Of a stretch of 64,000 nt of DNA, positions 36,711 through 64,000 are shown piece after piece; position 1 is the stretch's first letter; every line of letters starts with the position of its first letter. The translations under genes and the position numbers were made by a program. The stretch comes from Peronospora farinosa (taxonomy: Eukaryota > Oomycota > Peronosporomycetes > Peronosporales > Peronosporaceae). The stretch is taken from positions 124,001 to 188,000 of the forward strand of contig CANTFK010000982.1 in NCBI GenBank assembly GCA_947646735.1. Reading direction: 5' to 3'. A model generated the notes under the pieces. The model was given only the letters and a program-made list of their open reading frames with translations, was not told the DNA's origin and searched no databases.

Positions 36711-36755
36711 AGGCACCGCGGAGACACGACGGACGAGTCGGGAGAGAGCCAAGGT

Positions 36756-38176: not shown

Positions 38177-38764
38177 ATGAGCGAAGGCGCGTCACGGAAA
38201 GGTCCTGTTTGGCTCCAGAAAGTTTCGCCAAAAGGCCCCAGCCCCCCCCCTGACCGAGAGTATACCAAAAATCAACCAAGACGTCATGTCCAAGCCATCC
38301 GAGCTACATCAGGAAGTGAAGGTGAGCAAGAGTTCATCTCCAGTGGATCCGAGGGGGAGGGAGACCTGAAACGAATTTATGCGGCGGCGACCAAAGCCCA
38401 CACTGGTAGGACTCGGGACGTGGATGGACCTCGAGACCATCAGGACCCGAATCCGGATCGGGGACGGTGTGCGCCGGAGGGCCCCGGACAAAGAACGGGC
38501 CCAGCGGCCCCGCTGACGAAGTGTATCCATTGTGGATCCAGGAAGCATGGGGACCTGGACTGTTGGAGGCGACTCGTATGCGAACGATGTGGAAAGAAGG
38601 GGCACCCGGCCGACCGCTGTTTGTTTGTGTGTCGCGGTTGTAACGAGATCCACGACGCGGGGAAGTGCCAGATGGAGGCGTTCTACAACTTGATTCGCCA
38701 ATGGTACAACCTGACCAAGCATGTGGGGCAGCTGCCGGAGGCTGCCGAGAAGATGTTAAATTAG
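38177..38764 (+). pseudogene. Gypsy nucleocapsid with three zinc knuckles
   Basis: A polar, Pro/Glu-rich segment precedes three cysteine motifs: CIHCGSRKHGDLDC (about 38521), CERCGKKGHPADRC (about 38578) and CRGCNEIHDAGKC (about 38629). The first two are CCHC; the third has the same C-x2-C...H...C order. A helical tail ends at 38764. Nucleic-acid binding in the virus-like particle of an intact element. Confidence 0.8.
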
Positions 38765-39673: not shown

Positions 39674-39940
39674 GTTCTAGGAGGTATGCTGAATGGCAAA
39701 ACCTGGCCTACCAAGCTACCACTGACGAAGAAGACTCCGAACCCTTTCAAGAAGAAGAATACCAAAGTCTTATGGTCGAAAACCCCCAGTTGAAGAGCCC
39801 CGAGTCAGCACTGCCGGACTCAGAGGTAGGAGAAGATACTTTTGACGGGAAACAAAGAGCAGAAAGTCAGCCTGAACAAAGAAGCCCCAAGAATTGAAGA
39901 GTTCGGGATGGAGAAGGTCCAATCGCGGAGGGGCCAACGA
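39674..39940 (+). pseudogene. Gypsy acidic linker between protease and RT
   Basis: Low-complexity acidic segment (ATTDEEDSEPFQEEEYQSLM..., then a Pro/Ser-rich stretch) in shifting frames. It is the unique sequence just upstream of the first unit of the large array; the last unique bases are GGGGCCAAC before GAGATAATGG. Confidence 0.6.
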
Positions 39941-40779
39941 GATAATGGAGCCGAGGCAAATATAGCCGATGACCAGGTCTGGGTCCACGAGAGTGGAGAG
40001 CTATGCGCGGAAGATATTGACAAAAACTGTTCGATTATCCCCGAGGTCGCCCCTGTCTACAGACGAAGTCACGATGGAAGATATCCAGATTCTAGACTGT
40101 GGTGTAACTCCAAAGGAGCAAGTGGACCGTCTCCGCCAAATCATTTGGCAGAAACGACATCTGTTGATGCGAAAAGGCAGCGCGTTACCCCCGGCAGCCC
40201 GAGGAGCGGTGTGCGACATCGATGTGGGAAATGCACGGCCTATCGCCCAACGTGTACGGAAAGTGGCCCCTCAGTTTAGGGAGAAGCTGTCGGACCTAAT
40301 CAAGGGCCTGCTATCGTCTAAGATCATCCAGCATTCTACCTCACCATGGGCCAGCCCAATTGTGATCATCGTCAAGAAGAATGGAGTGGATATAAGGTTG
40401 TGTATCGATTACCGGATGGTGAACGAGCTGACGCGCCTCATGGTGTACCCTATGTATCTCGTTAACGAATTGTTGCAAGATTTGGACAAAGCCCTATGGT
40501 GTTGCTCGCTGGACATGGCCAGTGTTTTTTGGGTAGTCAGTATGACTGAGAGGGCTCGTTTGATTTCGGCATTTGTGACTCCGTTTGAGTTGTTTGAGTG
40601 GAAAAGAATGCCGTTTGGACTAAAGAATGCGCCGCAGATCTATCAGCGGCTGTTGGATAATGCTTTATATGGATTTCTTACGATTTCCTCAAAGCCGGGC
40701 TCTGACAAACAAGAGAACCTGTTGGAGTTGGGTAATCCCGAGGGAGACCTCAAGAATTCTACATTAGGACGTAGTTCGA
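39941..40779 (+). pseudogene. Array unit 1: native gypsy linker and RT fingers/palm
   Basis: First (839-bp) unit, continuous with upstream gypsy sequence. It encodes the N-terminal half of a Ty3/gypsy RT: LCIDYRMVNELTR, the first catalytic Asp in SLDMASVFW (most RTs have Gly where Val stands here), and MPFGLKNAPQIYQRLLDN. The frame ends in LGRSSR and TAA at 40784, just where the YxDD box would be expected, so the catalytic core is incomplete. Private features are Tyr in PMYLVNE (Ser in all other units) and Leu in ENLLELG (shared with unit 4). It also carries the one-base insertion CCCCTGTC. Confidence 0.88.
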
Positions 40780-43293
40780 GATAATGGAGCCGAGGCAAAT
40801 ATAGCCGATGACCAGGTCTGGGTCCACGAGAGTGGAGAGTTATGCGCGGAAGATATTGACAAAAACTGTTCGATTATCCCCGAGGTCGCCCCTTCTACAG
40901 ACGAAGTCACGATGGAAGATATCCAGATTCTAGACTGTGGTGTAACTCCAAAGGAGCAAGTGGACCGTCTCCGCCAAATCATTTGGCAGAAACGACATCT
41001 GTTGATGCGAAAAGGCAGCGCGTTACCCCCGGCAGCCCGAGGAGCGGTGTGCGACATCGATGTGGGAAATGCACGGCCTATCGCCCAACGTGTACGGAAA
41101 GTGGCCCCTCAGTTTAGGGAGAAGCTGTCGGACCTAATCAAGGGCCTGCTATCGTCTAAGGTCATCCAGCATTCTACCTCACCATGGGCCAGCCCAATTG
41201 TGATCATCGTCAAGAAGAATGGAGTGGATATAAGGTTGTGTATCGATTACCGGATGGTGAACGAGCTGACGCGCCTCATGGTGTACCCTATGTCTCTCGT
41301 TAACGAATTGTTGCAAGATTTGGACAAAGCCCTATGGTGTTGCTCGCTGGACATGGCCAGTGTTTTTTGGGTAGTCAGTATGACTGAGAGGGCTCGTTTG
41401 ATTTCGGCATTTGTGACTCCGTTTGAGTTGTTTGAGTGGAAAAGAATGCCGTTTGGACTAAATAATGCGCCGCAGATCTATCAGCGGCTGTTGGATAATG
41501 CTTTATATGGATTTCTTACGATTTCCTCAAAGCCGGGCTCTGACAAACAAGAGAACCTGTTCGAGTTGGGTAATCCCGAGGGAGACCTCAAGAATTCTAC
41601 ATTAGGACGTAGTTCGAGATAATGGAGCCGAGGCAAATATAGCCGATGACCAGGTCTGGGTCCACGAGAGTGGAGAGTTATGCGCGGAAGATATTGACAA
41701 AAACTGTTCGATTATCCCCGAGGTCGCCCCTTCTACAGACGAAGTCACGATGGAAGATATCCAGATTCTAGACTGTGGTGTAACTCCAAAGGAGCAAGTG
41801 GACCGTCTCCGCCAAATCATTTGGCAGAAACGACATCTGTTGATGCGAAAAGGCAGCGCGTTACCCCCGGCAGCCCGAGGAGCGGTGTGCGACATCGATG
41901 TGGGAAATGCACGGCCTATCGCCCAACGTGTACGGAAAGTGGCCCCTCAGTTTAGGGAGAAGCTGTCGGACCTAATCAAGGGCCTGCTATCGTCTAAGGT
42001 CATCCAGCATTCTACCTCACCATGGGCCAGCCCAATTGTGATCATCGTCAAGAAGAATGGAGTGGATATAAGGTTGTGTATCGATTACCGGATGGTGAAC
42101 GAGCTGACGCGCCTCATGGTGTACCCTATGTCTCTCGTTAACGAATTGTTGCAAGATTTGGACAAAGCCCTATGGTGTTGCTCGCTGGACATGGCCAGTG
42201 TTTTTTGGGTAGTCAGTATGACTGAGAGGGCTCGTTTGATTTCGGCATTTGTGACTCCGTTTGAGTTGTTTGAGTGGAAAAGAATGCCGTTTGGACTAAA
42301 GAATGCGCCGCAGATCTATCAGCGGCTGTTGGATAATGCTTTATATGGATTTCTTACGATTTCCTCAAAGCCGGGCTCTGACAAACAAGAGAACCTGTTC
42401 GAGTTGGGTAATCCCGAGGGAGACCTCAAGAATTCTACATTAGGACGTAGTTCGAGATAATGGAGCCGAGGCAAATATAGCCGATGACCAGGTCTGGGTC
42501 CACGAGAGTGGAGAGCTATGCGCGGAAGATATTGACAAAAACTGTTCGATTATCCCCGAGGTCGCCCCTTCTACAGACGAAGTCACGATGGAAGATATCC
42601 AGATTCTAGACTGTGGTGTAACTCCAAAGGAGCAAGTGGACCGTCTCCGCCAAATCATTTGGCAGAAACGACATCTGTTGATGCGAAAAGGCAGCGCGTT
42701 ACCCCCGGCAGCCCGAGGAGCGGTGTGCGACATCGATGTGGGAAATGCACGGCCTATCGCCCAACGTGTACGGAAAGTGGCCCCTCAGTTTAGGGAGAAG
42801 CTGTCGGACCTAATCAAGGGCCTGCTATCGTCTAAGGTCATCCAGCATTCTACCTCACCATGGGCCAGCCCAATTGTGATCATCGTCAAGAAGAATGGAG
42901 TGGATATAAGGTTGTGTATCGATTACCGGATGGTGAACGAGCTGACGCGCCTCATGGTGTACCCTATGTCTCTCGTTAACGAATTGTTGCAAGATTTGGA
43001 CAAAGCCCTATGGTGTTGCTCGCTGGACATGGCCAGTGTTTTTTGGGTAGTCAGTATGACTGAGAGGGCTCGTTTGATTTCGGCATTTGTGACTCCGTTT
43101 GAGTTGTTTGAGTGGAAAAGAATGCCGTTTGGACTAAAGAATGCGCCGCAGATCTATCAGCGGCTGTTGGATAATGCTTTATATGGATTTCTTACGATTT
43201 CCTCAAAGCCGGGCTCTGACAAACAAGAGAACCTGTTGGAGTTGGGTAATCCCGAGGGAGACCTCAAGAATTCTACATTAGGACGTAGTTCGA
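40780..43293 (+). repeat. Array units 2-4 (838 bp, Val-type)
   Basis: Three 838-bp units that share SVFW (Val for the conserved Gly) and SSKVIQH. Unit 2 has GLNNAP instead of GLKNAP; units 2 and 3 have GAGAGTTATG where others have GAGAGCTATG; unit 4 has ENLLELG like unit 1. Confidence 0.85.
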
Positions 43294-45810
43294 GATAATG
43301 GAGCCGAGGCAAATATAGCCGATGACCAGGTCTGGGTCCACGAGAGTGGAGAGCTATGCGCGGAAGATATTGACAAAAACTGTTCGATTATCCCCGAGGT
43401 CGCCCCTGTCTACAGACGAAGTCACGATGGAAGATATCCAGATTCTAGACTGTGGTGTAACTCCAAAGGAGCAAGTGGACCGTCTCCGCCAAATCATTTG
43501 GCAGAAACGACATCTGTTGATGCGAAAAGGCAGCGCGTTACCCCCGGCAGCCCGAGGAGCGGTGTGCGACATCGATGTGGGAAATGCACGGCCTATCGCC
43601 CAACGTGTACGGAAAGTGGCCCCTCAGTTTAGGGAGAAGCTGTCGGACCTAATCAAGGGCCTGCTATCGTCTAAGGTCATCCAGCATTCTACCTCACCAT
43701 GGGCCAGCCCAATTGTGATCATCGTCAAGAAGAATGGAGTGGATATAAGGTTGTGTATCGATTACCGGATGGTGAACGAGCTGACGCGCCTCATGGTGTA
43801 CCCTATGTCTCTCGTTAACGAATTGTTGCAAGATTTGGACAAAGCCCTATGGTGTTGCTCGCTGGACATGGCCAGTGGTTTTTGGGTAGTCAGTATGACT
43901 GAGAGGGCTCGTTTGATTTCGGCATTTGTGACTCCGTTTGAGTTGTTTGAGTGGAAAAGAATGCCGTTTGGACTAAAGAATGCGCCGCAGATCTATCAGC
44001 GGCTGTTGGATAATGCTTTATATGGATTTCTTACGATTTCCTCAAAGCCGGGCTCTGACAAACAAGAGAACCTGTTCGAGTTGGGTAATCCCGAGGGAGA
44101 CCTCAAGAATTCTACATTAGGACGTAGTTCGAGATAATGGAGCCGAGGCAAATATAGCCGATGACCAGGTCTGGGTCCACGAGAGTGGAGAGCTATGCGC
44201 GGAAGATATTGACAAAAACTGTTCGATTATCCCCGAGGTCGCCCCTGTCTACAGACGAAGTCACGATGGAAGATATCCAGATTCTAGACTGTGGTGTAAC
44301 TCCAAAGGAGCAAGTGGACCGTCTCCGCCAAATCATTTGGCAGAAACGACATCTGTTGATGCGAAAAGGCAGCGCGTTACCCCCGGCAGCCCGAGGAGCG
44401 GTGTGCGACATCGATGTGGGAAATGCACGGCCTATCGCCCAACGTGTACGGAAAGTGGCCCCTCAGTTTAGGGAGAAGCTGTCGGACCTAATCAAGGGCC
44501 TGCTATCGTCTAAGGTCATCCAGCATTCTACCTCACCATGGGCCAGCCCAATTGTGATCATCGTCAAGAAGAATGGAGTGGATATAAGGTTGTGTATCGA
44601 TTACCGGATGGTGAACGAGCTGACGCGCCTCATGGTGTACCCTATGTCTCTCGTTAACGAATTGTTGCAAGATTTGGACAAAGCCCTATGGTGTTGCTCG
44701 CTGGACATGGCCAGTGGTTTTTGGGTAGTCAGTATGACTGAGAGGGCTCGTTTGATTTCGGCATTTGTGACTCCGTTTGAGTTGTTTGAGTGGAAAAGAA
44801 TGCCGTTTGGACTAAATAATGCGCCGCAGATCTATCAGCGGCTGTTGGATAATGCTTTATATGGATTTCTTACGATTTCCTCAAAGCCGGGCTCTGACAA
44901 ACAAGAGAACCTGTTCGAGTTGGGTAATCCCGAGGGAGACCTCAAGAATTCTACATTAGGACGTAGTTCGAGATAATGGAGCCGAGGCAAATATAGCCGA
45001 TGACCAGGTCTGGGTCCACGAGAGTGGAGAGCTATGCGCGGAAGATATTGACAAAAACTGTTCGATTATCCCCGAGGTCGCCCCTGTCTACAGACGAAGT
45101 CACGATGGAAGATATCCAGATTCTAGACTGTGGTGTAACTCCAAAGGAGCAAGTGGACCGTCTCCGCCAAATCATTTGGCAGAAACGACATCTGTTGATG
45201 CGAAAAGGCAGCGCGTTACCCCCGGCAGCCCGAGGAGCGGTGTGCGACATCGATGTGGGAAATGCACGGCCTATCGCCCAACGTGTACGGAAAGTGGCCC
45301 CTCAGTTTAGGGAGAAGCTGTCGGACCTAATCAAGGGCCTGCTATCGTCTAAGGTCATCCAGCATTCTACCTCACCATGGGCCAGCCCAATTGTGATCAT
45401 CGTCAAGAAGAATGGAGTGGATATAAGGTTGTGTATCGATTACCGGATGGTGAACGAGCTGACGCGCCTCATGGTGTACCCTATGTCTCTCGTTAACGAA
45501 TTGTTGCAAGATTTGGACAAAGCCCTATGGTGTTGCTCGCTGGACATGGCCAGTGGTTTTTGGGTAGTCAGTATGACTGAGAGGGCTCGTTTGATTTCGG
45601 CATTTGTGACTCCGTTTGAGTTGTTTGAGTGGAAAAGAATGCCGTTTGGACTAAAGAATGCGCCGCAGATCTATCAGCGGCTGTTGGATAATGCTTTATA
45701 TGGATTTCTTACGATTTCCTCAAAGCCGGGCTCTGACAAACAAGAGAACCTGTTCGAGTTGGGTAATCCCGAGGGAGACCTCAAGAATTCTACATTAGGA
45801 CGTAGTTCGA
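43294..45810 (+). repeat. Array units 5-7 (839 bp, Gly-type)
   Basis: Three 839-bp units with the conserved SGFW and SSKVIQH. The extra base opens a longer 271-codon frame starting MTRSGSTRVES. Unit 6 has GLNNAP, otherwise seen only in unit 2, which implies exchange between blocks. Confidence 0.85.
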
Positions 45811-48324
45811 GATAATGGAGCCGAGGCAAATATAGCCGATGACCAGGTCTGGGTCCACGAGAGTGGAGAGCTATGCGCGGAAGATATTGACAAAAACTGT
45901 TCGATTATCCCCGAGGTCGCCCCTTCTACAGACGAAGTCACGATGGAAGATATCCAGATTCTAGACTGTGGTGTAACTCCAAAGGAGCAAGTGGACCGTC
46001 TCCGCCAAATCATTTGGCAGAAACGACATCTGTTGATGCGAAAAGGCAGCGCGTTACCCCCGGCAGCCCGAGGAGCGGTGTGCGACATCGATGTGGGAAA
46101 TGCACGGCCTATCGCCCAACGTGTACGGAAAGTGGCCCCTCAGTTTAGGGAGAAGCTGTCGGACCTAATCAAGGGCCTGCTATCGTCTAAGATCATCCAG
46201 CATTCTACCTCACCATGGGCCAGCCCAATTGTGATCATCGTCAAGAAGAATGGAGTGGATATAAGGTTGTGTATCGATTACCGGATGGTGAACGAGCTGA
46301 CGCGCCTCATGGTGTACCCTATGTCTCTCGTTAACGAATTGTTGCAAGATTTGGACAAAGCCCTATGGTGTTGCTCGCTGGACATGGCCAGTGGTTTTTG
46401 GGTAGTCAGTATGACTGAGAGGGCTCGTTTGATTTCGGCATTTGTGACTCCGTTTGAGTTGTTTGAGTGGAAAAGAATGCCGTTTGGACTAAAGAATGCG
46501 CCGCAGATCTATCAGCGGCTGTTGGATAATGCTTTATATGGATTTCTTACGATTTCCTCAAAGCCGGGCTCTGACAAACAAGAGAACCTGTTCGAGTTGG
46601 GTAATCCCGAGGGAGACCTCAAGAATTCTACATTAGGACGTAGTTCGAGATAATGGAGCCGAGGCAAATATAGCCGATGACCAGGTCTGGGTCCACGAGA
46701 GTGGAGAGCTATGCGCGGAAGATATTGACAAAAACTGTTCGATTATCCCCGAGGTCGCCCCTTCTACAGACGAAGTCACGATGGAAGATATCCAGATTCT
46801 AGACTGTGGTGTAACTCCAAAGGAGCAAGTGGACCGTCTCCGCCAAATCATTTGGCAGAAACGACATCTGTTGATGCGAAAAGGCAGCGCGTTACCCCCG
46901 GCAGCCCGAGGAGCGGTGTGCGACATCGATGTGGGAAATGCACGGCCTATCGCCCAACGTGTACGGAAAGTGGCCCCTCAGTTTAGGGAGAAGCTGTCGG
47001 ACCTAATCAAGGGCCTGCTATCGTCTAAGATCATCCAGCATTCTACCTCACCATGGGCCAGCCCAATTGTGATCATCGTCAAGAAGAATGGAGTGGATAT
47101 AAGGTTGTGTATCGATTACCGGATGGTGAACGAGCTGACGCGCCTCATGGTGTACCCTATGTCTCTCGTTAACGGATTGTTGCAAGATTTGGACAAAGCC
47201 CTATGGTGTTGCTCGCTGGACATGGCCAGTGGTTTTTGGGTAGTCAGTATGACTGAGAGGGCTCGTTTGATTTCGGCATTTGTGACTCCGTTTGAGTTGT
47301 TTGAGTGGAAAAGAATGCCGTTTGGACTAAAGAATGCGCCGCAGATCTATCAGCGGCTGTTGGATAATGCTTTATATGGATTTCTTACGATTTCCTCAAA
47401 GCCGGGCTCTGACAAACAAGAGAACCTGTTCGAGTTGGGTAATCCCGAGGGAGACCTCAAGAATTCTACATTAGGACGTAGTTCGAGATAATGGAGCCGA
47501 GGCAAATATAGCCGATGACCAGGTCTGGGTCCACGAGAGTGGAGAGCTATGCGCGGAAGATATTGACAAAAACTGTTCGATTATCCCCGAGGTCGCCCCT
47601 TCTACAGACGAAGTCACGATGGAAGATATCCAGATTCTAGACTGTGGTGTAACTCCAAAGGAGCAAGTGGACCGTCTCCGCCAAATCATTTGGCAGAAAC
47701 GACATCTGTTGATGCGAAAAGGCAGCGCGTTACCCCCGGCAGCCCGAGGAGCGGTGTGCGACATCGATGTGGGAAATGCACGGCCTATCGCCCAACGTGT
47801 ACGGAAAGTGGCCCCTCAGTTTAGGGAGAAGCTGTCGGACCTAATCAAGGGCCTGCTATCGTCTAAGATCATCCAGCATTCTACCTCACCATGGGCCAGC
47901 CCAATTGTGATCATCGTCAAGAAGAATGGAGTGGATATAAGGTTGTGTATCGATTACCGGATGGTGAACGAGCTGACGCGCCTCATGGTGTACCCTATGT
48001 CTCTCGTTAACGGATTGTTGCAAGATTTGGACAAAGCCCTATGGTGTTGCTCGCTGGACATGGCCAGTGGTTTTTGGGTAGTCAGTATGACTGAGAGGGC
48101 TCGTTTGATTTCGGCATTTGTGACTCCGTTTGAGTTGTTTGAGTGGAAAAGAATGCCGTTTGGACTAAAGAATGCGCCGCAGATCTATCAGCGGCTGTTG
48201 GATAATGCTTTATATGGATTTCTTACGATTTCCTCAAAGCCGGGCTCTGACAAACAAGAGAACCTGTTCGAGTTGGGTAATCCCGAGGGAGACCTCAAGA
48301 ATTCTACATTAGGACGTAGTTCGA
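45811..48324 (+). repeat. Array units 8-10 (838 bp, Gly-type, Ile)
   Basis: 838-bp units with SGFW and SSKIIQH. Units 9 and 10 share LVNGLL in place of LVNELL, so one is a copy of the other. Confidence 0.85.
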
Positions 48325-51300
48325 GATAATGGAGCCGAGGCAAATATAGCCGATGACCAGGTCTGGGTCCACGAGAGTGGAGAGCTATGCGCGGAAGATA
48401 TTGACAAAAACTGTTCGATTATCCCCGAGGTCGCCCCTTCTACAGACGAAGTCACGATGGAAGATATCCAGATTCTAGACTGTGGTGTAACTCCAAAGGA
48501 GCAAGTGGACCGTCTCCGCCAAATCATTTGGCAGAAACGACATCTGTTGATGCGAAAAGGCAGCGCGTTACCCCCGGCAGCCCGAGGAGCGGTGTGCGAC
48601 ATCGATGTGGGAAATGCACGGCCTATCGCCCAACGTGTACGGAAAGTGGCCCCTCAGTTTAGGGAGAAGCTGTCGGACCTAATCAAGGGCCTGCTATCGT
48701 CTAAGGTCATCCAGCATTCTACCTCACCATGGGCCAGCCCAATTGTGATCATCGTCAAGAAGAATGGAGTGGATATAAGGTTGTGTATCGATTACCGGAT
48801 GGTGAACGAGCTGACGCGCCTCATGGTGTACCCTATGTCTCTCGTTAACGAATTGTTGCAAGATTTGGACAAAGCCCTATGGTGTTGCTCGCTGGACATG
48901 GCCAGTGGTTTTTGGGTAGTCAGTATGACTGAGAGGGCTCGTTTGATTTCGGCATTTGTGACTCCGTTTGAGTTGTTTGAGTGGAAAAGAATGCCGTTTG
49001 GACTAAAGAATGCGCCGCAGATCTATCAGCGGCTGTTGGATAATGCTTTATATGGATTTCTTACGATTTCCTCAAAGCCGGGCTCTGACAAACAAGAGAA
49101 CCTGTTCGAGTTGGGTAATCCCGAGGGAGACCTCAAGAATTCTACATTAGGACGTAGTTCGAGATAATGGAGCCGAGGCAAATATAGCCGATGACCAGGT
49201 CTGGGTCCACGAGAGTGGAGAGCTATGCGCGGAAGATATTGACAAAAACTGTTCGATTATCCCCGAGGTCGCCCCTTCTACAGACGAAGTCACGATGGAA
49301 GATATCCAGATTCTAGACTGTGGTGTAACTCCAAAGGAGCAAGTGGACCGTCTCCGCCAAATCATTTGGCAGAAACGACATCTGTTGATGCGAAAAGGCA
49401 GCGCGTTACCCCCGGCAGCCCGAGGAGCGGTGTGCGACATCGATGTGGGAAATGCACGGCCTATCGCCCAACGTGTACGGAAAGTGGCCCCTCAGTTTAG
49501 GGAGAAGCTGTCGGACCTAATCAAGGGCCTGCTATCGTCTAAGATCATCCAGCATTCTACCTCACCATGGGCCAGCCCAATTGTGATCATCGTCAAGAAG
49601 AATGGAGTGGATATAAGGTTGTGTATCGATTACCGGATGGTGAACGAGCTGACGCGCCTCATGGTGTACCCTATGTCTCTCGTTAACGAATTGTTGCAAG
49701 ATTTGGACAAAGCCCTATGGTGTTGCTCGCTGGACATGGCCAGTGGTTTTTGGGTAGTCAGTATGACTGAGAGGGCTCGTTTGATTTCGGCATTTGTGAC
49801 TCCGTTTGAGTTGTTTGAGTGGAAAAGAATGCCGTTTGGACTAAAGAATGCGCCGCAGATCTATCAGCGGCTGTTGGATAATGCTTTATATGGATTTCTT
49901 ACGATTTCCTCAAAGCCGGGCTCTGACAAACAAGAGAACCTGTTCGAGTTGGGTAATCCCGAGGGAGACCTCAAGAATTCTACATTAGGACGTAGTTCGA
50001 GATAATGGAGCCGAGGCAAATATAGCCGATGACCAGGTCTGGGTCCACGAGAGTGGAGAGCTATGCGCGGAAGATATTGACAAAAACTGTTCGATTATCC
50101 CCGAGGTCGCCCCTTCTACAGACGAAGTCACGATGGAAGATATCCAGATTCTAGACTGTGGTGTAACTCCAAAGGAGCAAGTGGACCGTCTCCGCCAAAT
50201 CATTTGGCAGAAACGACATCTGTTGATGCGAAAAGGCAGCGCGTTACCCCCGGCAGCCCGAGGAGCGGTGTGCGACATCGATGTGGGAAATGCACGGCCT
50301 ATCGCCCAACGTGTACGGAAAGTGGCCCCTCAGTTTAGGGAGAAGCTGTCGGACCTAATCAAGGGCCTGCTATCGTCTAAGATCATCCAGCATTCTACCT
50401 CACCATGGGCCAGCCCAATTGTGATCATCGTCAAGAAGAATGGAGTGGATATAAGGTTGTGTATCGATTACCGGATGGTGAACGAGCTGACGCGCCTCAT
50501 GGTGTACCCTATGTCTCTCGTTAACGAATTGTTGCAAGATTTGGACAAAGCCCTATGGTGTTGCTCGCTGGACATGGCCAGTGTTTTTTGGGTAGTCAGT
50601 ATGACTGAGAGGGCTCGTTTGATTTCGGCATTTGTGACTCCGTTTGAGTTGTTTGAGTGGAAAAGAATGCCGTTTGGACTAAAGAATGCGCCGCAGATCT
50701 ATCAGCGGCTGTTGGATAATGCTTTATATGGATTTCTTACGATTTCCTCAAAGCCGGGCTCTGACAAACAAGAGAACCTGTTCGAGTTGGGTAATCCCGA
50801 GGGAGACCTCAAGAATTCTACATTAGGACGTAGTTCGAGATAATGGAGCCGAGGCAAATATAGCCGATGACCAGGTCTGGGTCCACGAGAGTGGAGAGCT
50901 ATGCGCGGAAGATATTGACAAAAACTGTTCGATTATCCCCGAGGTCGCCCCTTCTACAGACGAAGTCACGATGGAAGATATCCAGATTCTAGACTGTGGT
51001 GTAACTCCAAAGGAGCAAGTGGACCGTCTCCGCCAAATCATTTGGCAGAAACGACATCTGTTGATGCGAAAAGGCAGCGCGTTACCCCCGGCAGCCCGAG
51101 GAGCGGTGTGCGACATCGATGTGGGAAATGCACGGCCTATCGCCCAACGTGTACGGAAAGTGGCCCCTCAGTTTAGGGAGAAGCTGTCGGACCTAATCAA
51201 GGGCCTGCTATCGTCTAAGATCATCCAGCATTCTACCTCACCATGGGCCAGCCCAATTGTGATCATCGTCAAGAAGAATGGAGTGGATATAAGGTTGTGT

Positions 51301-54300
51301 ATCGATTACCGGATGGTGAACGAGCTGACGCGCCTCATGGTGTACCCTATGTCTCTCGTTAACGAATTGTTGCAAGATTTGGACAAAGCCCTATGGTGTT
51401 GCTCGCTGGACATGGCCAGTGGTTTTTGGGTAGTCAGTATGACTGAGAGGGCTCGTTTGATTTCGGCATTTGTGACTCCGTTTGAGTTGTTTGAGTGGAA
51501 AAGAATGCCGTTTGGACTAAAGAATGCGCCGCAGATCTATCAGCGGCTGTTGGATAATGCTTTATATGGATTTCTTACGATTTCCTCAAAGCCGGGCTCT
51601 GACAAACAAGAGAACCTGTTCGAGTTGGGTAATCCCGAGGGAGACCTCAAGAATTCTACATTAGGACGTAGTTCGAGATAATGGAGCCGAGGCAAATATA
51701 GCCGATGACCAGGTCTGGGTCCACGAGAGTGGAGAGCTATGCGCGGAAGATATTGACAAAAACTGTTCGATTATCCCCGAGGTCGCCCCTTCTACAGACG
51801 AAGTCACGATGGAAGATATCCAGATTCTAGACTGTGGTGTAACTCCAAAGGAGCAAGTGGACCGTCTCCGCCAAATCATTTGGCAGAAACGACATCTGTT
51901 GATGCGAAAAGGCAGCGCGTTACCCCCGGCAGCCCGAGGAGCGGTGTGCGACATCGATGTGGGAAATGCACGGCCTATCGCCCAACGTGTACGGAAAGTG
52001 GCCCCTCAGTTTAGGGAGAAGCTGTCGGACCTAATCAAGGGCCTGCTATCGTCTAAGATCATCCAGCATTCTACCTCACCATGGGCCAGCCCAATTGTGA
52101 TCATCGTCAAGAAGAATGGAGTGGATATAAGGTTGTGTATCGATTACCGGATGGTGAACGAGCTGACGCGCCTCATGGTGTACCCTATGTCTCTCGTTAA
52201 CGAATTGTTGCAAGATTTGGACAAAGCCCTATGGTGTTGCTCGCTGGACATGGCCAGTGGTTTTTGGGTAGTCAGTATGACTGAGAGGGCTCGTTTGATT
52301 TCGGCATTTGTGACTCCGTTTGAGTTGTTTGAGTGGAAAAGAATGCCGTTTGGACTAAAGAATGCGCCGCAGATCTATCAGCGGCTGTTGGATAATGCTT
52401 TATATGGATTTCTTACGATTTCCTCAAAGCCGGGCTCTGACAAACAAGAGAACCTGTTCGAGTTGGGTAATCCCGAGGGAGACCTCAAGAATTCTACATT
52501 AGGACGTAGTTCGAGATAATGGAGCCGAGGCAAATATAGCCGATGACCAGGTCTGGGTCCACGAGAGTGGAGAGCTATGCGCGGAAGATATTGACAAAAA
52601 CTGTTCGATTATCCCCGAGGTCGCCCCTTCTACAGACGAAGTCACGATGGAAGATATCCAGATTCTAGACTGTGGTGTAACTCCAAAGGAGCAAGTGGAC
52701 CGTCTCCGCCAAATCATTTGGCAGAAACGACATCTGTTGATGCGAAAAGGCAGCGCGTTACCCCCGGCAGCCCGAGGAGCGGTGTGCGACATCGATGTGG
52801 GAAATGCACGGCCTATCGCCCAACGTGTACGGAAAGTGGCCCCTCAGTTTAGGGAGAAGCTGTCGGACCTAATCAAGGGCCTGCTATCGTCTAAGATCAT
52901 CCAGCATTCTACCTCACCATGGGCCAGCCCAATTGTGATCATCGTCAAGAAGAATGGAGTGGATATAAGGTTGTGTATCGATTACCGGATGGTGAACGAG
53001 CTGACGCGCCTCATGGTGTACCCTATGTCTCTCGTTAACGAATTGTTGCAAGATTTGGACAAAGCCCTATGGTGTTGCTCGCTGGACATGGCCAGTGGTT
53101 TTTGGGTAGTCAGTATGACTGAGAGGGCTCGTTTGATTTCGGCATTTGTGACTCCGTTTGAGTTGTTTGAGTGGAAAAGAATGCCGTTTGGACTAAAGAA
53201 TGCGCCGCAGATCTATCAGCGGCTGTTGGATAATGCTTTATATGGATTTCTTACGATTTCCTCAAAGCCGGGCTCTGACAAACAAGAGAACCTGTTCGAG
53301 TTGGGTAATCCCGAGGGAGACCTCAAGAATTCTACATTAGGACGTAGTTCGAGATAATGGAGCCGAGGCAAATATAGCCGATGACCAGGTCTGGGTCCAC
53401 GAGAGTGGAGAGCTATGCGCGGAAGATATTGACAAAAACTGTTCGATTATCCCCGAGGTCGCCCCTTCTACAGACGAAGTCACGATGGAAGATATCCAGA
53501 TTCTAGACTGTGGTGTAACTCCAAAGGAGCAAGTGGACCGTCTCCGCCAAATCATTTGGCAGAAACGACATCTGTTGATGCGAAAAGGCAGCGCGTTACC
53601 CCCGGCAGCCCGAGGAGCGGTGTGCGACATCGATGTGGGAAATGCACGGCCTATCGCCCAACGTGTACGGAAAGTGGCCCCTCAGTTTAGGGAGAAGCTG
53701 TCGGACCTAATCAAGGGCCTGCTATCGTCTAAGATCATCCAGCATTCTACCTCACCATGGGCCAGCCCAATTGTGATCATCGTCAAGAAGAATGGAGTGG
53801 ATATAAGGTTGTGTATCGATTACCGGATGGTGAACGAGCTGACGCGCCTCATGGTGTACCCTATGTCTCTCGTTAACGAATTGTTGCAAGATTTGGACAA
53901 AGCCCTATGGTGTTGCTCGCTGGACATGGCCAGTGGTTTTTGGGTAGTCAGTATGACTGAGAGGGCTCGTTTGATTTCGGCATTTGTGACTCCGTTTGAG
54001 TTGTTTGAGTGGAAAAGAATGCCGTTTGGACTAAAGAATGCGCCGCAGATCTATCAGCGGCTGTTGGATAATGCTTTATATGGATTTCTTACGATTTCCT
54101 CAAAGCCGGGCTCTGACAAACAAGAGAACCTGTTCGAGTTGGGTAATCCCGAGGGAGACCTCAAGAATTCTACATTAGGACGTAGTTCGAGATAATGGAG
54201 CCGAGGCAAATATAGCCGATGACCAGGTCTGGGTCCACGAGAGTGGAGAGCTATGCGCGGAAGATATTGACAAAAACTGTTCGATTATCCCCGAGGTCGC

Positions 54301-55866
54301 CCCTTCTACAGACGAAGTCACGATGGAAGATATCCAGATTCTAGACTGTGGTGTAACTCCAAAGGAGCAAGTGGACCGTCTCCGCCAAATCATTTGGCAG
54401 AAACGACATCTGTTGATGCGAAAAGGCAGCGCGTTACCCCCGGCAGCCCGAGGAGCGGTGTGCGACATCGATGTGGGAAATGCACGGCCTATCGCCCAAC
54501 GTGTACGGAAAGTGGCCCCTCAGTTTAGGGAGAAGCTGTCGGACCTAATCAAGGGCCTGCTATCGTCTAAGATCATCCAGCATTCTACCTCACCATGGGC
54601 CAGCCCAATTGTGATCATCGTCAAGAAGAATGGAGTGGATATAAGGTTGTGTATCGATTACCGGATGGTGAACGAGCTGACGCGCCTCATGGTGTACCCT
54701 ATGTCTCTCGTTAACGAATTGTTGCAAGATTTGGACAAAGCCCTATGGTGTTGCTCGCTGGACATGGCCAGTGTTTTTTGGGTAGTCAGTATGACTGAGA
54801 GGGCTCGTTTGATTTCGGCATTTGTGACTCCGTTTGAGTTGTTTGAGTGGAAAAGAATGCCGTTTGGACTAAAGAATGCGCCGCAGATCTATCAGCGGCT
54901 GTTGGATAATGCTTTATATGGATTTCTTACGATTTCCTCAAAGCCGGGCTCTGACAAACAAGAGAACCTGTTCGAGTTGGGTAATCCCGAGGGAGACCTC
55001 AAGAATTCTACATTAGGACGTAGTTCGAGATAATGGAGCCGAGGCAAATATAGCCGATGACCAGGTCTGGGTCCACGAGAGTGGAGAGCTATGCGCGGAA
55101 GATATTGACAAAAACTGTTCGATTATCCCCGAGGTCGCCCCTTCTACAGACGAAGTCACGATGGAAGATATCCAGATTCTAGACTGTGGTGTAACTCCAA
55201 AGGAGCAAGTGGACCGTCTCCGCCAAATCATTTGGCAGAAACGACATCTGTTGATGCGAAAAGGCAGCGCGTTACCCCCGGCAGCCCGAGGAGCGGTGTG
55301 CGACATCGATGTGGGAAATGCACGGCCTATCGCCCAACGTGTACGGAAAGTGGCCCCTCAGTTTAGGGAGAAGCTGTCGGACCTAATCAAGGGCCTGCTA
55401 TCGTCTAAGATCATCCAGCATTCTACCTCACCATGGGCCAGCCCAATTGTGATCATCGTCAAGAAGAATGGAGTGGATATAAGGTTGTGTATCGATTACC
55501 GGATGGTGAACGAGCTGACGCGCCTCATGGTGTACCCTATGTCTCTCGTTAACGAATTGTTGCAAGATTTGGACAAAGCCCTATGGTGTTGCTCGCTGGA
55601 CATGGCCAGTGGTTTTTGGGTAGTCAGTATGACTGAGAGGGCTCGTTTGATTTCGGCATTTGTGACTCCGTTTGAGTTGTTTGAGTGGAAAAGAATGCCG
55701 TTTGGACTAAAGAATGCGCCGCAGATCTATCAGCGGCTGTTGGATAATGCTTTATATGGATTTCTTACGATTTCCTCAAAGCCGGGCTCTGACAAACAAG
55801 AGAACCTGTTCGAGTTGGGTAATCCCGAGGGAGACCTCAAGAATTCTACATTAGGACGTAGTTCGA
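48325..55866 (+). repeat. Array units 11-19 (838 bp, mixed)
   Basis: Mostly SGFW and SSKIIQH. Unit 11 reverts to SSKVIQH; units 13 and 18 have SVFW. The two Val units are five units apart, compatible with duplication of a five-unit block. Confidence 0.8.
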
Positions 55867-58800
55867 GATAATGGAGCCGAGGCAAATATAGCCGATGACC
55901 AGGTCTGGGTCCACGAGAGTGGAGAGCTATGCGCGGAAGATATTGACAAAAACTGTTCGATTATCCCCGAGGTCGCCCCTTCTACAGACGAAGTCACGAT
56001 GGAAGATATCCAGATTCTAGACTGTGGTGTAACTCCAAAGGAGCAAGTGGACCGTCTCCGCCAAATCATTTGGCAGAAACGACATCTGTTGATGCGAAAA
56101 GGCAACGCGTTACCCCCGGCAGCCCGAGGAGCGGTGTGCGACATCGATGTGGGAAATGCACGGCCTATCGCCCAACGTGTACGGAAAGTGGCCCCTCAGT
56201 TTAGGGAGAAGCTGTCGGACCTAATCAAGGGCCTGCTATCGTCTAAGATCATCCAGCATTCTACCTCACCATGGGCCAGCCCAATTGTGATCATCGTCAA
56301 GAAGAATGGAGTGGATATAAGGTTGTGTATCGATTACCGGATGGTGAACGAGCTGACGCGCCTCATGGTGTACCCTATGTCTCTCGTTAACGAATTGTTG
56401 CAAGATTTGGACAAAGCCCTATGGTGTTGCTCGCTGGACATGGCCAGTGTTTTTTGGGTAGTCAGTATGACTGAGAGGGCTCGTTTGATTTCGGCATTTG
56501 TGACTCCGTTTGAGTTGTTTGAGTGGAAAAGAATGCCGTTTGGACTAAAGAATGCGCCGCAGATCTATCAGCGGCTGTTGGATAATGCTTTATATGGATT
56601 TCTTACGATTTCCTCAAAGCCGGGCTCTGACAAACAAGAGAACCTGTTCGAGTTGGGTAATCCCGAGGGAGACCTCAAGAATTCTACATTAGGACGTAGT
56701 TCGAGATAATGGAGCCGAGGCAAATATAGCCGATGACCAGGTCTGGGTCCACGAGAGTGGAGAGCTATGCGCGGAAGATATTGACAAAAACTGTTCGATT
56801 ATCCCCGAGGTCGCCCCTTCTACAGACGAAGTCACGATGGAAGATATCCAGATTCTAGACTGTGGTGTAACTCCAAAGGAGCAAGTGGACCGTCTCCGCC
56901 AAATCATTTGGCAGAAACGACATCTGTTGATGCGAAAAGGCAACGCGTTACCCCCGGCAGCCCGAGGAGCGGTGTGCGACATCGATGTGGGAAATGCACG
57001 GCCTATCGCCCAACGTGTACGGAAAGTGGCCCCTCAGTTTAGGGAGAAGCTGTCGGACCTAATCAAGGGCCTGCTATCGTCTAAGATCATCCAGCATTCT
57101 ACCTCACCATGGGCCAGCCCAATTGTGATCATCGTCAAGAAGAATGGAGTGGATATAAGGTTGTGTATCGATTACCGGATGGTGAACGAGCTGACGCGCC
57201 TCATGGTGTACCCTATGTCTCTCGTTAACGAATTGTTGCAAGATTTGGACAAAGCCCTATGGTGTTGCTCGCTGGACATGGCCAGTGTTTTTTGGGTAGT
57301 CAGTATGACTGAGAGGGCTCGTTTGATTTCGGCATTTGTGACTCCGTTTGAGTTGTTTGAGTGGAAAAGAATGCCGTTTGGACTAAAGAATGCGCCGCAG
57401 ATCTATCAGCGGCTGTTGGATAATGCTTTATATGGATTTCTTACGATTTCCTCAAAGCCGGGCTCTGACAAACAAGAGAACCTGTTCGAGTTGGGTAATC
57501 CCGAGGGAGACCTCAAGAATTCTACATTAGGACGTAGTTCGAGATAATGGAGCCGAGGCAAATATAGCCGATGACCAGGTCTGGGTCCACGAGAGTGGAG
57601 AGCTATGCGCGGAAGATATTGACAAAAACTGTTCGATTATCCCCGAGGTCGCCCCTTCTACAGACGAAGTCACGATGGAAGATATCCAGATTCTAGACTG
57701 TGGTGTAACTCCAAAGGAGCAAGTGGACCGTCTCCGCCAAATCATTTGGCAGAAACGACATCTGTTGATGCGAAAAGGCAGCGCGTTACCCCCGGCAGCC
57801 CGAGGAGCGGTGTGCGACATCGATGTGGGAAATGCACGGCCTATCGCCCAACGTGTACGGAAAGTGGCCCCTCAGTTTAGGGAGAAGCTGTCGGACCTAA
57901 TCAAGGGCCTGCTATCGTCTAAGATCATCCAGCATTCTACCTCACCATGGGCCAGCCCAATTGTGATCATCGTCAAGAAGAATGGAGTGGATATAAGGTT
58001 GTGTATCGATTACCGGATGGTGAACGAGCTGACGCGCCTCATGGTGTACCCTATGTCTCTCGTTAACGAATTGTTGCAAGATTTGGACAAAGCCCTATGG
58101 TGTTGCTCGCTGGACATGGCCAGTGTTTTTTGGGTAGTCAGTATGACTGAGAGGGCTCGTTTGATTTCGGCATTTGTGACTCCGTTTGAGTTGTTTGAGT
58201 GGAAAAGAATGCCGTTTGGACTAAAGAATGCGCCGCAGATCTATCAGCGGCTGTTGGATAATGCTTTATATGGATTTCTTACGATTTCCTCAAAGCCGGG
58301 CTCTGACAAACAAGAGAACCTGTTCGAGTTGGGTAATCCCGAGGGAGACCTCAAGAATTCTACATTAGGACGTAGTTCGAGATAATGGAGCCGAGGCAAA
58401 TATAGCCGATGACCAGGTCTGGGTCCACGAGAGTGGAGAGCTATGCGCGGAAGATATTGACAAAAACTGTTCGATTATCCCCGAGGTCGCCCCTTCTACA
58501 GACGAAGTCACGATGGAAGATATCCAGATTCTAGACTGTGGTGTAACTCCAAAGGAGCAAGTGGACCGTCTCCGCCAAATCATTTGGCAGAAACGACATC
58601 TGTTGATGCGAAAAGGCAACGCGTTACCCCCGGCAGCCCGAGGAGCGGTGTGCGACATCGATGTGGGAAATGCACGGCCTATCGCCCAACGTGTACGGAA
58701 AGTGGCCCCTCAGTTTAGGGAGAAGCTGTCGGACCTAATCAAGGGCCTGCTATCGTCTAAGATCATCCAGCATTCTACCTCACCATGGGCCAGCCCAATT

Positions 58801-61800
58801 GTGATCATCGTCAAGAAGAATGGAGTGGATATAAGGTTGTGTATCGATTACCGGATGGTGAACGAGCTGACGCGCCTCATGGTGTACCCTATGTCTCTCG
58901 TTAACGAATTGTTGCAAGATTTGGACAAAGCCCTATGGTGTTGCTCGCTGGACATGGCCAGTGTTTTTTGGGTAGTCAGTATGACTGAGAGGGCTCGTTT
59001 GATTTCGGCATTTGTGACTCCGTTTGAGTTGTTTGAGTGGAAAAGAATGCCGTTTGGACTAAAGAATGCGCCGCAGATCTATCAGCGGCTGTTGGATAAT
59101 GCTTTATATGGATTTCTTACGATTTCCTCAAAGCCGGGCTCTGACAAACAAGAGAACCTGTTCGAGTTGGGTAATCCCGAGGGAGACCTCAAGAATTCTA
59201 CATTAGGACGTAGTTCGAGATAATGGAGCCGAGGCAAATATAGCCGATGACCAGGTCTGGGTCCACGAGAGTGGAGAGCTATGCGCGGAAGATATTGACA
59301 AAAACTGTTCGATTATCCCCGAGGTCGCCCCTTCTACAGACGAAGTCACGATGGAAGATATCCAGATTCTAGACTGTGGTGTAACTCCAAAGGAGCAAGT
59401 GGACCGTCTCCGCCAAATCATTTGGCAGAAACGACATCTGTTGATGCGAAAAGGCAACGCGTTACCCCCGGCAGCCCGAGGAGCGGTGTGCGACATCGAT
59501 GTGGGAAATGCACGGCCTATCGCCCAACGTGTACGGAAAGTGGCCCCTCAGTTTAGGGAGAAGCTGTCGGACCTAATCAAGGGCCTGCTATCGTCTAAGA
59601 TCATCCAGCATTCTACCTCACCATGGGCCAGCCCAATTGTGATCATCGTCAAGAAGAATGGAGTGGATATAAGGTTGTGTATCGATTACCGGATGGTGAA
59701 CGAGCTGACGCGCCTCATGGTGTACCCTATGTCTCTCGTTAACGAATTGTTGCAAGATTTGGACAAAGCCCTATGGTGTTGCTCGCTGGACATGGCCAGT
59801 GTTTTTTGGGTAGTCAGTATGACTGAGAGGGCTCGTTTGATTTCGGCATTTGTGACTCCGTTTGAGTTGTTTGAGTGGAAAAGAATGCCGTTTGGACTAA
59901 AGAATGCGCCGCAGATCTATCAGCGGCTGTTGGATAATGCTTTATATGGATTTCTTACGATTTCCTCAAAGCCGGGCTCTGACAAACAAGAGAACCTGTT
60001 CGAGTTGGGTAATCCCGAGGGAGACCTCAAGAATTCTACATTAGGACGTAGTTCGAGATAATGGAGCCGAGGCAAATATAGCCGATGACCAGGTCTGGGT
60101 CCACGAGAGTGGAGAGCTATGCGCGGAAGATATTGACAAAAACTGTTCGATTATCCCCGAGGTCGCCCCTTCTACAGACGAAGTCACGATGGAAGATATC
60201 CAGATTCTAGACTGTGGTGTAACTCCAAAGGAGCAAGTGGACCGTCTCCGCCAAATCATTTGGCAGAAACGACATCTGTTGATGCGAAAAGGCAACGCGT
60301 TACCCCCGGCAGCCCGAGGAGCGGTGTGCGACATCGATGTGGGAAATGCACGGCCTATCGCCCAACGTGTACGGAAAGTGGCCCCTCAGTTTAGGGAGAA
60401 GCTGTCGGACCTAATCAAGGGCCTGCTATCGTCTAAGATCATCCAGCATTCTACCTCACCATGGGCCAGCCCAATTGTGATCATCGTCAAGAAGAATGGA
60501 GTGGATATAAGGTTGTGTATCGATTACCGGATGGTGAACGAGCTGACGCGCCTCATGGTGTACCCTATGTCTCTCGTTAACGAATTGTTGCAAGATTTGG
60601 ACAAAGCCCTATGGTGTTGCTCGCTGGACATGGCCAGTGTTTTTTGGGTAGTCAGTATGACTGAGAGGGCTCGTTTGATTTCGGCATTTGTGACTCCGTT
60701 TGAGTTGTTTGAGTGGAAAAGAATGCCGTTTGGACTAAAGAATGCGCCGCAGATCTATCAGCGGCTGTTGGATAATGCTTTATATGGATTTCTTACGATT
60801 TCCTCAAAGCCGGGCTCTGACAAACAAGAGAACCTGTTCGAGTTGGGTAATCCCGAGGGAGACCTCAAGAATTCTACATTAGGACGTAGTTCGAGATAAT
60901 GGAGCCGAGGCAAATATAGCCGATGACCAGGTCTGGGTCCACGAGAGTGGAGAGCTATGCGCGGAAGATATTGACAAAAACTGTTCGATTATCCCCGAGG
61001 TCGCCCCTTCTACAGACGAAGTCACGATGGAAGATATCCAGATTCTAGACTGTGGTGTAACTCCAAAGGAGCAAGTGGACCGTCTCCGCCAAATCATTTG
61101 GCAGAAACGACATCTGTTGATGCGAAAAGGCAACGCGTTACCCCCGGCAGCCCGAGGAGCGGTGTGCGACATCGATGTGGGAAATGCACGGCCTATCGCC
61201 CAACGTGTACGGAAAGTGGCCCCTCAGTTTAGGGAGAAGCTGTCGGACCTAATCAAGGGCCTGCTATCGTCTAAGATCATCCAGCATTCTACCTCACCAT
61301 GGGCCAGCCCAATTGTGATCATCGTCAAGAAGAATGGAGTGGATATAAGGTTGTGTATCGATTACCGGATGGTGAACGAGCTGACGCGCCTCATGGTGTA
61401 CCCTATGTCTCTCGTTAACGAATTGTTGCAAGATTTGGACAAAGCCCTATGGTGTTGCTCGCTGGACATGGCCAGTGTTTTTTGGGTAGTCAGTATGACT
61501 GAGAGGGCTCGTTTGATTTCGGCATTTGTGACTCCGTTTGAGTTGTTTGAGTGGAAAAGAATGCCGTTTGGACTAAAGAATGCGCCGCAGATCTATCAGC
61601 GGCTGTTGGATAATGCTTTATATGGATTTCTTACGATTTCCTCAAAGCCGGGCTCTGACAAACAAGAGAACCTGTTCGAGTTGGGTAATCCCGAGGGAGA
61701 CCTCAAGAATTCTACATTAGGACGTAGTTCGAGATAATGGAGCCGAGGCAAATATAGCCGATGACCAGGTCTGGGTCCACGAGAGTGGAGAGCTATGCGC

Positions 61801-64000
61801 GGAAGATATTGACAAAAACTGTTCGATTATCCCCGAGGTCGCCCCTTCTACAGACGAAGTCACGATGGAAGATATCCAGATTCTAGACTGTGGTGTAACT
61901 CCAAAGGAGCAAGTGGACCGTCTCCGCCAAATCATTTGGCAGAAACGACATCTGTTGATGCGAAAAGGCAACGCGTTACCCCCGGCAGCCCGAGGAGCGG
62001 TGTGCGACATCGATGTGGGAAATGCACGGCCTATCGCCCAACGTGTACGGAAAGTGGCCCCTCAGTTTAGGGAGAAGCTGTCGGACCTAATCAAGGGCCT
62101 GCTATCGTCTAAGATCATCCAGCATTCTACCTCACCATGGGCCAGCCCAATTGTGATCATCGTCAAGAAGAATGGAGTGGATATAAGGTTGTGTATCGAT
62201 TACCGGATGGTGAACGAGCTGACGCGCCTCATGGTGTACCCTATGTCTCTCGTTAACGAATTGTTGCAAGATTTGGACAAAGCCCTATGGTGTTGCTCGC
62301 TGGACATGGCCAGTGTTTTTTGGGTAGTCAGTATGACTGAGAGGGCTCGTTTGATTTCGGCATTTGTGACTCCGTTTGAGTTGTTTGAGTGGAAAAGAAT
62401 GCCGTTTGGACTAAAGAATGCGCCGCAGATCTATCAGCGGCTGTTGGATAATGCTTTATATGGATTTCTTACGATTTCCTCAAAGCCGGGCTCTGACAAA
62501 CAAGAGAACCTGTTCGAGTTGGGTAATCCCGAGGGAGACCTCAAGAATTCTACATTAGGACGTAGTTCGAGATAATGGAGCCGAGGCAAATATAGCCGAT
62601 GACCAGGTCTGGGTCCACGAGAGTGGAGAGCTATGCGCGGAAGATATTGACAAAAACTGTTCGATTATCCCCGAGGTCGCCCCTTCTACAGACGAAGTCA
62701 CGATGGAAGATATCCAGATTCTAGACTGTGGTGTAACTCCAAAGGAGCAAGTGGACCGTCTCCGCCAAATCATTTGGCAGAAACGACATCTGTTGATGCG
62801 AAAAGGCAACGCGTTACCCCCGGCAGCCCGAGGAGCGGTGTGCGACATCGATGTGGGAAATGCACGGCCTATCGCCCAACGTGTACGGAAAGTGGCCCCT
62901 CAGTTTAGGGAGAAGCTGTCGGACCTAATCAAGGGCCTGCTATCGTCTAAGATCATCCAGCATTCTACCTCACCATGGGCCAGCCCAATTGTGATCATCG
63001 TCAAGAAGAATGGAGTGGATATAAGGTTGTGTATCGATTACCGGATGGTGAACGAGCTGACGCGCCTCATGGTGTACCCTATGTCTCTCGTTAACGAATT
63101 GTTGCAAGATTTGGACAAAGCCCTATGGTGTTGCTCGCTGGACATGGCCAGTGTTTTTTGGGTAGTCAGTATGACTGAGAGGGCTCGTTTGATTTCGGCA
63201 TTTGTGACTCCGTTTGAGTTGTTTGAGTGGAAAAGAATGCCGTTTGGACTAAAGAATGCGCCGCAGATCTATCAGCGGCTGTTGGATAATGCTTTATATG
63301 GATTTCTTACGATTTCCTCAAAGCCGGGCTCTGACAAACAAGAGAACCTGTTCGAGTTGGGTAATCCCGAGGGAGACCTCAAGAATTCTACATTAGGACG
63401 TAGTTCGAGATAATGGAGCCGAGGCAAATATAGCCGATGACCAGGTCTGGGTCCACGAGAGTGGAGAGCTATGCGCGGAAGATATTGACAAAAACTGTTC
63501 GATTATCCCCGAGGTCGCCCCTTCTACAGACGAAGTCACGATGGAAGATATCCAGATTCTAGACTGTGGTGTAACTCCAAAGGAGCAAGTGGACCGTCTC
63601 CGCCAAATCATTTGGCAGAAACGACATCTGTTGATGCGAAAAGGCAACGCGTTACCCCCGGCAGCCCGAGGAGCGGTGTGCGACATCGATGTGGGAAATG
63701 CACGGCCTATCGCCCAACGTGTACGGAAAGTGGCCCCTCAGTTTAGGGAGAAGCTGTCGGACCTAATCAAGGGCCTGCTATCGTCTAAGATCATCCAGCA
63801 TTCTACCTCACCATGGGCCAGCCCAATTGTGATCATCGTCAAGAAGAATGGAGTGGATATAAGGTTGTGTATCGATTACCGGATGGTGAACGAGCTGACG
63901 CGCCTCATGGTGTACCCTATGTCTCTCGTTAACGAATTGTTGCAAGATTTGGACAAAGCCCTATGGTGTTGCTCGCTGGACATGGCCAGTGTTTTTTGGG
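55867..64000 (+). repeat. Array units 20-29 (838 bp, Val-type, Asn)
   Basis: All have SVFW and SSKIIQH. All have KGNALPP (Asn for Ser) except unit 22. Units 23 to 28 encode identical proteins, and the part of unit 29 inside the window also matches. This is the most homogeneous, so probably youngest, part; it continues beyond the window. Confidence 0.85.

What the first reader, a model, noticed from the sequence alone, without database searches (positions are those of the whole stretch)
39941..64000. Satellite-like array made from the N-terminal half of a gypsy reverse transcriptase
Seen: at least 28 full tandem 838/839-bp units, each a linker plus RT fingers/palm, all open, none with YxDD, RNase H or integrase. 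Known: satellites can arise from retroelement pieces, usually LTRs or untranslated regions; a long array of an open RT segment is unusual. Inference: rolling-circle or unequal-crossover amplification of one pol fragment, perhaps at a heterochromatic or centromere-like site, or selection for a truncated RT-like protein.
Basis: partly seen in the sequence, partly recalled or inferred. Interest (0 to 1): 0.85.

Follow-up and report, generated by a model that had tools for sequence, protein, structure and literature searches.

The report
Newborn satellite from a dead retrotransposon
In a downy-mildew genome assembly, an 838-base piece from inside one decayed gypsy retrotransposon copy stands repeated head to tail about 50 times up to the contig's end, and it likely grew where it lies by unequal crossing-over, a nearly newborn satellite DNA of a kind already known.

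Summary
Window 39938-64000 carries 28 complete units and part of a 29th; the array runs on to the very end of the contig (C262:163938-205826, 41.9 kb, 49 complete units plus 688 bp). A protein match and the contig length identify a Peronospora farinosa assembly. Each unit is a 133-bp pol linker plus the first two thirds of the RT domain, cut a few bases before the YIDD codons. The piece is contiguous in dispersed relatives, and the array's left flank is the gag-protease part of the same element, so the array sits inside its parent copy. The junction is identical in 49 of 49 places, and pattern searches found it nowhere else in the assembly. Only 14 alignment columns vary, and neighbouring units are more alike than distant ones (0 of 10,000 shuffles), as expected of a real array homogenised by unequal exchange and not of an assembler loop. 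A selected protein is not supported: 10 of 12 coding variants change an amino acid, and one unit is frameshifted. Satellites from gag or pol pieces, including a Gypsy-derived one in Phytophthora, are in print. What is good here is the stage: one locus, still inside its parent element. True length, right border, chromosome position and transcription are unknown.

The parts
39938..64000 (+). tandem array in the window: 28 complete 838/839-bp units and part of a 29th; continues 17,826 bp beyond the window to the contig end
   Evidence: BLAST of one unit against the window; continuation fetched as L039 and L040, unit positions
39938..40073 (+). linker part of the first unit (pol stretch between protease and RT)
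   Evidence: contiguous with RT in dispersed relatives
40074..40776 (+). RT part of the first unit (RVT_1 profile positions 1-138 of 205); ends a few bases before the YIDD codons of relatives
40912..41622 (+). 236-aa open frame of the second unit, ending at the stop codon made at the unit junction
40771..40791 (+). first of 49 identical unit junctions (C262:164771-164791)
   Evidence: pattern searches of the whole assembly: 49 forward matches with 0 mismatches, no others at up to 2 mismatches (21-mer) or up to 3 (20-mer)
38665..39673 (+). protease region of the same element, in more than one reading frame; directly upstream of the array
   Evidence: weak gag-asp_proteas match below the curated cut-off, E 0.00048, in the ORF at 38665-39219; none in the ORF at 39170-39673; flank pieces 77-94% identical to relatives, the last 130-150 bp contiguous with the linker in 19 of 27
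36300..38764 (+). leader and gag region of the parent element (cysteine-rich stretch near 38530-38640 read by eye as zinc knuckles)
   Evidence: DNA similarity to relatives, most of it from about 38645 on; no relevant Pfam match in the ORFs at 36756, 37566 and 38177; the gag and zinc-knuckle reading is by eye and by position

Best explanation
This is an array of about 50 near-identical 838-bp copies of an internal pol piece standing inside one decayed Ty3/gypsy copy of Peronospora farinosa, and it likely began as an in-place tandem duplication and likely grew and was homogenised by unequal crossing-over. Shown: the unit is contiguous in dispersed relatives; the left flank is the upstream part of the same element; one identical junction joins all units; the variants are few and shared by neighbours; changes in the frame are mostly amino-acid changes. 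Inferred: one initial duplication between a point in the protease-RT linker and a point just before the YIDD codons (with at most a few matching bases, since the unbroken right side is not in the assembly), then out-of-register exchange or conversion between units. The open frames are likely a remnant of the founder, kept because the array is young; each ends at a stop created by the junction and would give at most an RT fragment without its catalytic YIDD. The array most likely has no function of its own, is nascent satellite DNA, and is likely longer than assembled.
For: Unit identity and extent. 14 variable columns, 17 distinct unit sequences among 49, mean 2.2 differences between units; 1.06 between neighbours against 2.20 shuffled, 0 of 10,000 shuffles as low, rising from 1.06 at lag 1 to 3.16 at lag 30. 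Junction 49 of 49 identical and not found elsewhere. Linker and RT adjacent in relatives; in 19 of 27 relatives the flank's last 130-150 bp are contiguous with the linker. A YIDD-like site follows the unit's end position in 25 of 27 relatives (search strings chosen after viewing). An open relative, L037, reads protease, complete RT and RNase H in one 1,229-aa frame, the gypsy order (integrase lies beyond the stretch held). No sign of constraint: 10 of 12 coding substitutions among units nonsynonymous, one frameshifted unit; 12 of 13 unit-specific changes nonsynonymous against 77% of all possible changes; 24 of 27 relatives have a stop or frameshift gap in this stretch.
Against: The array ends exactly where the contig ends, so the right border, the total length and the element's remaining part are not seen; no raw reads could be examined. 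Variant blocks alone do not separate unequal crossing-over from conversion, or from rolling-circle amplification followed by local exchange. Two of the variable columns lie where long-read errors are plausible by eye (a one-base length variant and a run of T).
Confidence: 0.74

Rival explanations
1. An extrachromosomal circle of the 838-bp piece was amplified by rolling-circle replication and put back into its parent element by homologous recombination, giving the same borders in one step.
For: All 49 junctions identical and period nearly constant; 15 of 49 units share one sequence.
Against: Variants form a gradient along the array, which needs at least later stepwise exchange; no second site with the junction was found. 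Circles cannot be seen in an assembly, so their absence was not tested.
Confidence: 0.14
2. Assembly artefact: the assembler walked round a loop made by one or two copies at the end of the contig.
For: The array stops exactly at the contig end; no reads available.
Against: Loop walking would be expected to give identical units, whereas 17 unit types occur with strong order along the array (0 of 10,000 shuffles); the left border lies in non-array sequence; a protein from an ENA contig of 1,519 bp ends with the same junction tail, though that contig may itself be a chimera.
Confidence: 0.06
3. The duplication arose during reverse transcription (template switching between co-packaged genomes), so a mobile element with internal tandem copies inserted here.
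For: Abnormal strand transfer between co-packaged copies is one hypothesis cited for tandem repeats inside Ogre elements (PMC7004042, passages seen).
Against: No other place in the assembly carries the junction, and some 42 kb is far beyond what an LTR element is expected to package (recalled), so growth must have followed insertion in any case.
Confidence: 0.05
4. The open frames are kept by selection as a truncated RT-like protein, for example one that interferes with the active family.
For: 48 of 49 complete units are open although 24 of 27 dispersed relatives are broken in this stretch.
Against: All units descend from one founder, so openness counts once; 10 of 12 coding variants and 12 of 13 unit-specific changes are nonsynonymous, the latter at sites where at least 80% of 24 near relatives agree. 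dN/dS against the 24 nearer relatives is 0.25-0.81; the low 0.06 against the three open copies reflects silent-site distance to a constrained lineage and decides nothing.
Confidence: 0.01

Closest known systems
PpSat3, Gypsy-derived tandem repeat of Phytophthora parasitica (PMC7290008; abstract, passages and the section with its Table 1 read)
   Same: Oomycete, tandem repeat derived from a Gypsy element (88% of length matching), 191 repeats with a longest array of 136
   Different: 294-bp unit on two scaffolds; which part of the element it comes from was not in the parts read; here 838 bp, one locus, still joined to the parent element; sequence relationship not tested
Satellites from gag or pol segments of LTR retrotransposons (reviews PMC12628747 and PMC9659126, passages seen; gag-related repeats of Aegilops speltoides and rye named there)
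   Same: Unit taken from coding sequence of an LTR element
   Different: The LTR-element coding examples named in the passages seen are gag-related; no RT-derived array with its parent element was in them. Ages and genome spread of those examples were not looked up
Ogre-derived satellites of Lathyrus sativus (PMC7004042, passages seen)
   Same: Ty3/gypsy origin, arrays found within the element's own context, expansion from local short arrays
   Different: They come from short tandem repeats already present in the 3' untranslated region of Ogre elements; here a coding piece that is single-copy in the relatives examined

Membership tests
satellite DNA | long head-to-tail array of near-identical units | tested here: met
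   49 complete units plus one partial, 41.9 kb, mean 0.26% difference between units
satellite DNA | units homogenised within the array (neighbours most alike) | tested here: met
   0 of 10,000 shuffles as low as observed
satellite DNA | abundant or found at several sites, typically heterochromatic | tested here: inconclusive
   one locus in the assembly; chromatin state not testable; array cut by the contig end
retrotransposon-derived satellite | unit is a piece of a dispersed mobile element | tested here: met
   38 dispersed RT-part matches at 83-94% listed, only 39 of 390 candidates scored; contiguous in relatives
Ty3/gypsy source element | order protease, RT, RNase H, then integrase | tested here: inconclusive
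   protease, complete RT and RNase H in that order in relative L037; integrase beyond the stretch held
functional gypsy reverse transcriptase | complete RT domain with the YxDD motif, followed by RNase H and integrase | tested here: not met
   RVT_1 positions 1-138 of 205 only in the two unit ORFs tested, stop codon at the junction before YIDD
PpSat3 family | sequence homology to PpSat3 | not tested
   PpSat3 sequence was not in the text read
centromeric repeat | location at a functional centromere | not testable with these tools
   no Hi-C or ChIP; P. effusa centromeres, except on chromosomes 1 and 15, are reported to be enriched in a Copia-like element (PMC11540230, passages seen)

The most novel reading that the evidence does not exclude
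The array is a self-made silencing locus: transcribed as a long head-to-tail copy of the family's own RT coding sequence, it feeds small RNAs that keep its parent gypsy family and related copies silent, a retroelement 'vaccine' caught at birth. One unit shares 90-287 exact 21-mers with each of 24 of the 27 dispersed copies examined and 30 with each of the other three, which are open in this stretch, so the pairing it would need is possible.
Probability: 0.06. Interest if true: 0.75.

Novelty: new member of a known kind. Interest (0 to 1): 0.42.

Why it matters
How a satellite is born is usually reconstructed from old, spread-out arrays (general knowledge). Here one array still sits inside the element copy that made it, with a single junction, one visible border, a set of dispersed relatives and an early variant gradient. 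That makes the first steps (duplication, growth, homogenisation) directly testable by comparing strains. For genome work it is also a warning: such an array ends a contig and offers dozens of truncated RT frames to gene finders.

Tried and rejected
Tandem Repeats Finder reports no row for the array because its longest period is 500; BLAST and spacing were used instead. Selection for a protein was tested by variant classes and dN/dS and not supported. A second locus or the right border was sought by whole-unit DNA search (39 of 390 candidates scored, so incomplete), by the unit tail (40 of 112 scored) and by pattern: the 30-base tail pattern with up to 3 mismatches gives 50 exact matches on this contig and two others, at 2 and 3 mismatches, at the places of relatives L017 and L014. 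So no right border was found; one that differs by more than 3 bases there would be missed. A database protein with the same tail, P0001 (315 aa, source ENA, contig of 1,519 bp), is the only one of 120 listed hits (of 533 found) with it, and the only one of 3 hits to the tail that ends at the junction. Over residues 3-314 it is 94% identical to L036, closer than to the array unit (90%), while its last residues agree with the array; it is either a real mosaic or a short-read chimera, and its DNA could not be fetched. It is only moderate support for the junction. Paper searches for satellites from RT or coding regions and for downy-mildew satellites returned no paper; some searches gave listings, from which the papers cited were opened. 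Of the titles and abstract starts listed none names this array. PMC12844528 was opened for passages and has none on satellites. No structure prediction was run: a fragment without YIDD would tell little about function.
Full report
Observation. One unit aligned to the window shows an unbroken head-to-tail series from 39938 to 64000 with a period of 838 or 839 bp: 28 complete periods at 99.4-100% identity, 460 bp at the window's end at 99.6%, and the first linker at 98.5%. The window is C262:124001-188000 of a 46.85-Mb assembly. The next stretches of the contig show that the array goes on to its last base, 205,826: 50 RT starts, 49 complete periods (44 of 838 bp, 4 of 839, 1 of 837) and a last one of 688 bp. 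The array as assembled is C262:163938-205826, 41.9 kb.

Organism. The MCM9-like protein in the window (669 aa) is 100% identical over its length to a Peronospora farinosa protein whose longest contig is 205,826 bp, the length of C262. P. farinosa is a downy mildew oomycete (taxonomy).

What the unit is. It consists of 133 bp of linker and about 704 bp of RT. In the two unit ORFs tested Pfam gives RVT_1, profile positions 1-138 of 205, and nothing else. In dispersed relatives in the same genome linker and RT are contiguous. At the unit's end the relatives go on with the codons of YIDD; a YIDD-like site lies at that position in 25 of 27 relatives examined, these 27 being the ones cut out as loci of 38 listed (search strings chosen after viewing). 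One open relative, L037, reads protease, complete RT (1-205 of 205) and RNase H in a single 1,229-aa frame, the gypsy order; integrase lies beyond the stretch held. In the array the linker start follows instead of YIDD, which creates a stop codon. The unit is therefore a contiguous internal piece of a gypsy-type element, cut just before its catalytic motif.

Where it sits. Pieces of the flank left of the array are 77-94% identical to the gag-protease part of relatives, and in 19 of 27 its last 130-150 bp are contiguous with the linker; about 60 bp present in many relatives are missing here near window 39800. A weak protease match supports this (E 0.00048, below the curated cut-off). The array thus lies in its parent copy, whose upstream part is spread over several frames.

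Uniqueness. The junction occurs 49 times, all without mismatch and all on this contig, with no other place at up to 2 mismatches (21-mer) or 3 (20-mer). The right border was not found.

Is it real? Fourteen alignment columns vary among 49 complete units, giving 17 unit types and 2.2 differences per pair on average (0.26%). Neighbours differ by 1.06 on average against 2.20 in shuffled order, and none of 10,000 shuffles is as low; the difference grows from 1.06 at lag 1 to 3.16 at lag 30. A loop walked by an assembler would be expected to give identical units, and polishing noise to have no order (inference). In addition a protein predicted from an ENA contig of 1,519 bp ends with the same tail and junction (P0001; the only one of 120 listed of 533 hits; the only one of 3 hits in a tail search that ends there). 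Over most of its length it is closer to relative L036 (94%) than to the unit (90%), so it may be a chimera of a short-read assembly; it still suggests that the junction exists in other data. Reads were not available, so the copy number is not proven.

Is it selected? Of 12 coding substitution columns 10 change the amino acid. Of 13 changes special to the unit relative to 24 near relatives 12 change the amino acid, against 77% of all possible single changes. One unit is frameshifted. Of 27 relatives 24 have a stop or frameshift gap in this stretch, and their dN/dS against the unit is 0.25-0.81; against the three open copies it is about 0.06, with dS near 0.9, which reflects a long constrained history of the active lineage and does not decide about the array. 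The founder likely belonged to a decaying branch of the family; it happened to be open, and all units inherited that. In favour of selection one can cite that 48 of 49 complete units are open.

Mechanism. The left border, the single junction and the resident flank fit one in-place tandem duplication, and the variant gradient fits later out-of-register exchange; both steps are inferred. Rolling-circle amplification with return to the parent element would give the same borders and stays the main rival.

Comparison. Satellites from LTR, gag or pol segments are reviewed in print (PMC12628747 and PMC9659126, passages seen), a Gypsy-derived repeat is known in Phytophthora parasitica (PpSat3, PMC7290008, abstract, passages and one section seen), and satellites growing from arrays inside Ogre elements are known in Lathyrus (PMC7004042, passages seen). 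The kind is therefore known; the array is a new member, notable for being caught inside its parent copy.

Noticed in passing
window 5169-15565 and 18849-29254: Large inverted repeat (10.4-kb arms, 99.6% identical, 27 mismatches and 13 gap positions) with a 3.3-kb centre; the arms carry mirrored ORFs, of which one of each pair was tested: an MCM9-like gene and an SDF-type symporter. Real palindrome or assembly fold-back is undecided.
   Followed up: partly
window 1-4250: Copia-type pieces (RVT_2; gag_pre-integrase and Pol_BBD) beside a 376-bp inverted pair at 1117-1492 and 4726-5101.
   Followed up: no
window 33096-35797: Cluster of degenerate minisatellites (periods 7-66 bp) just upstream of the parent element, with a 301-bp inverted pair at 33946-34246 and 36024-36324.
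   Followed up: no
protein P0001 (ENA contig of 1,519 bp): 315-aa RT fragment whose last 47 residues are 96% identical to the array unit, junction tail included, while over most of its length it is closest to L036.
   Followed up: partly
L036, L037, L038: Three copies of a sister subfamily that are open over this stretch (L036 against L024: dN 0.019, dS 0.80), whereas the other 24 of 27 examined copies are broken; L037 is open over its whole 3.7 kb.
   Followed up: partly
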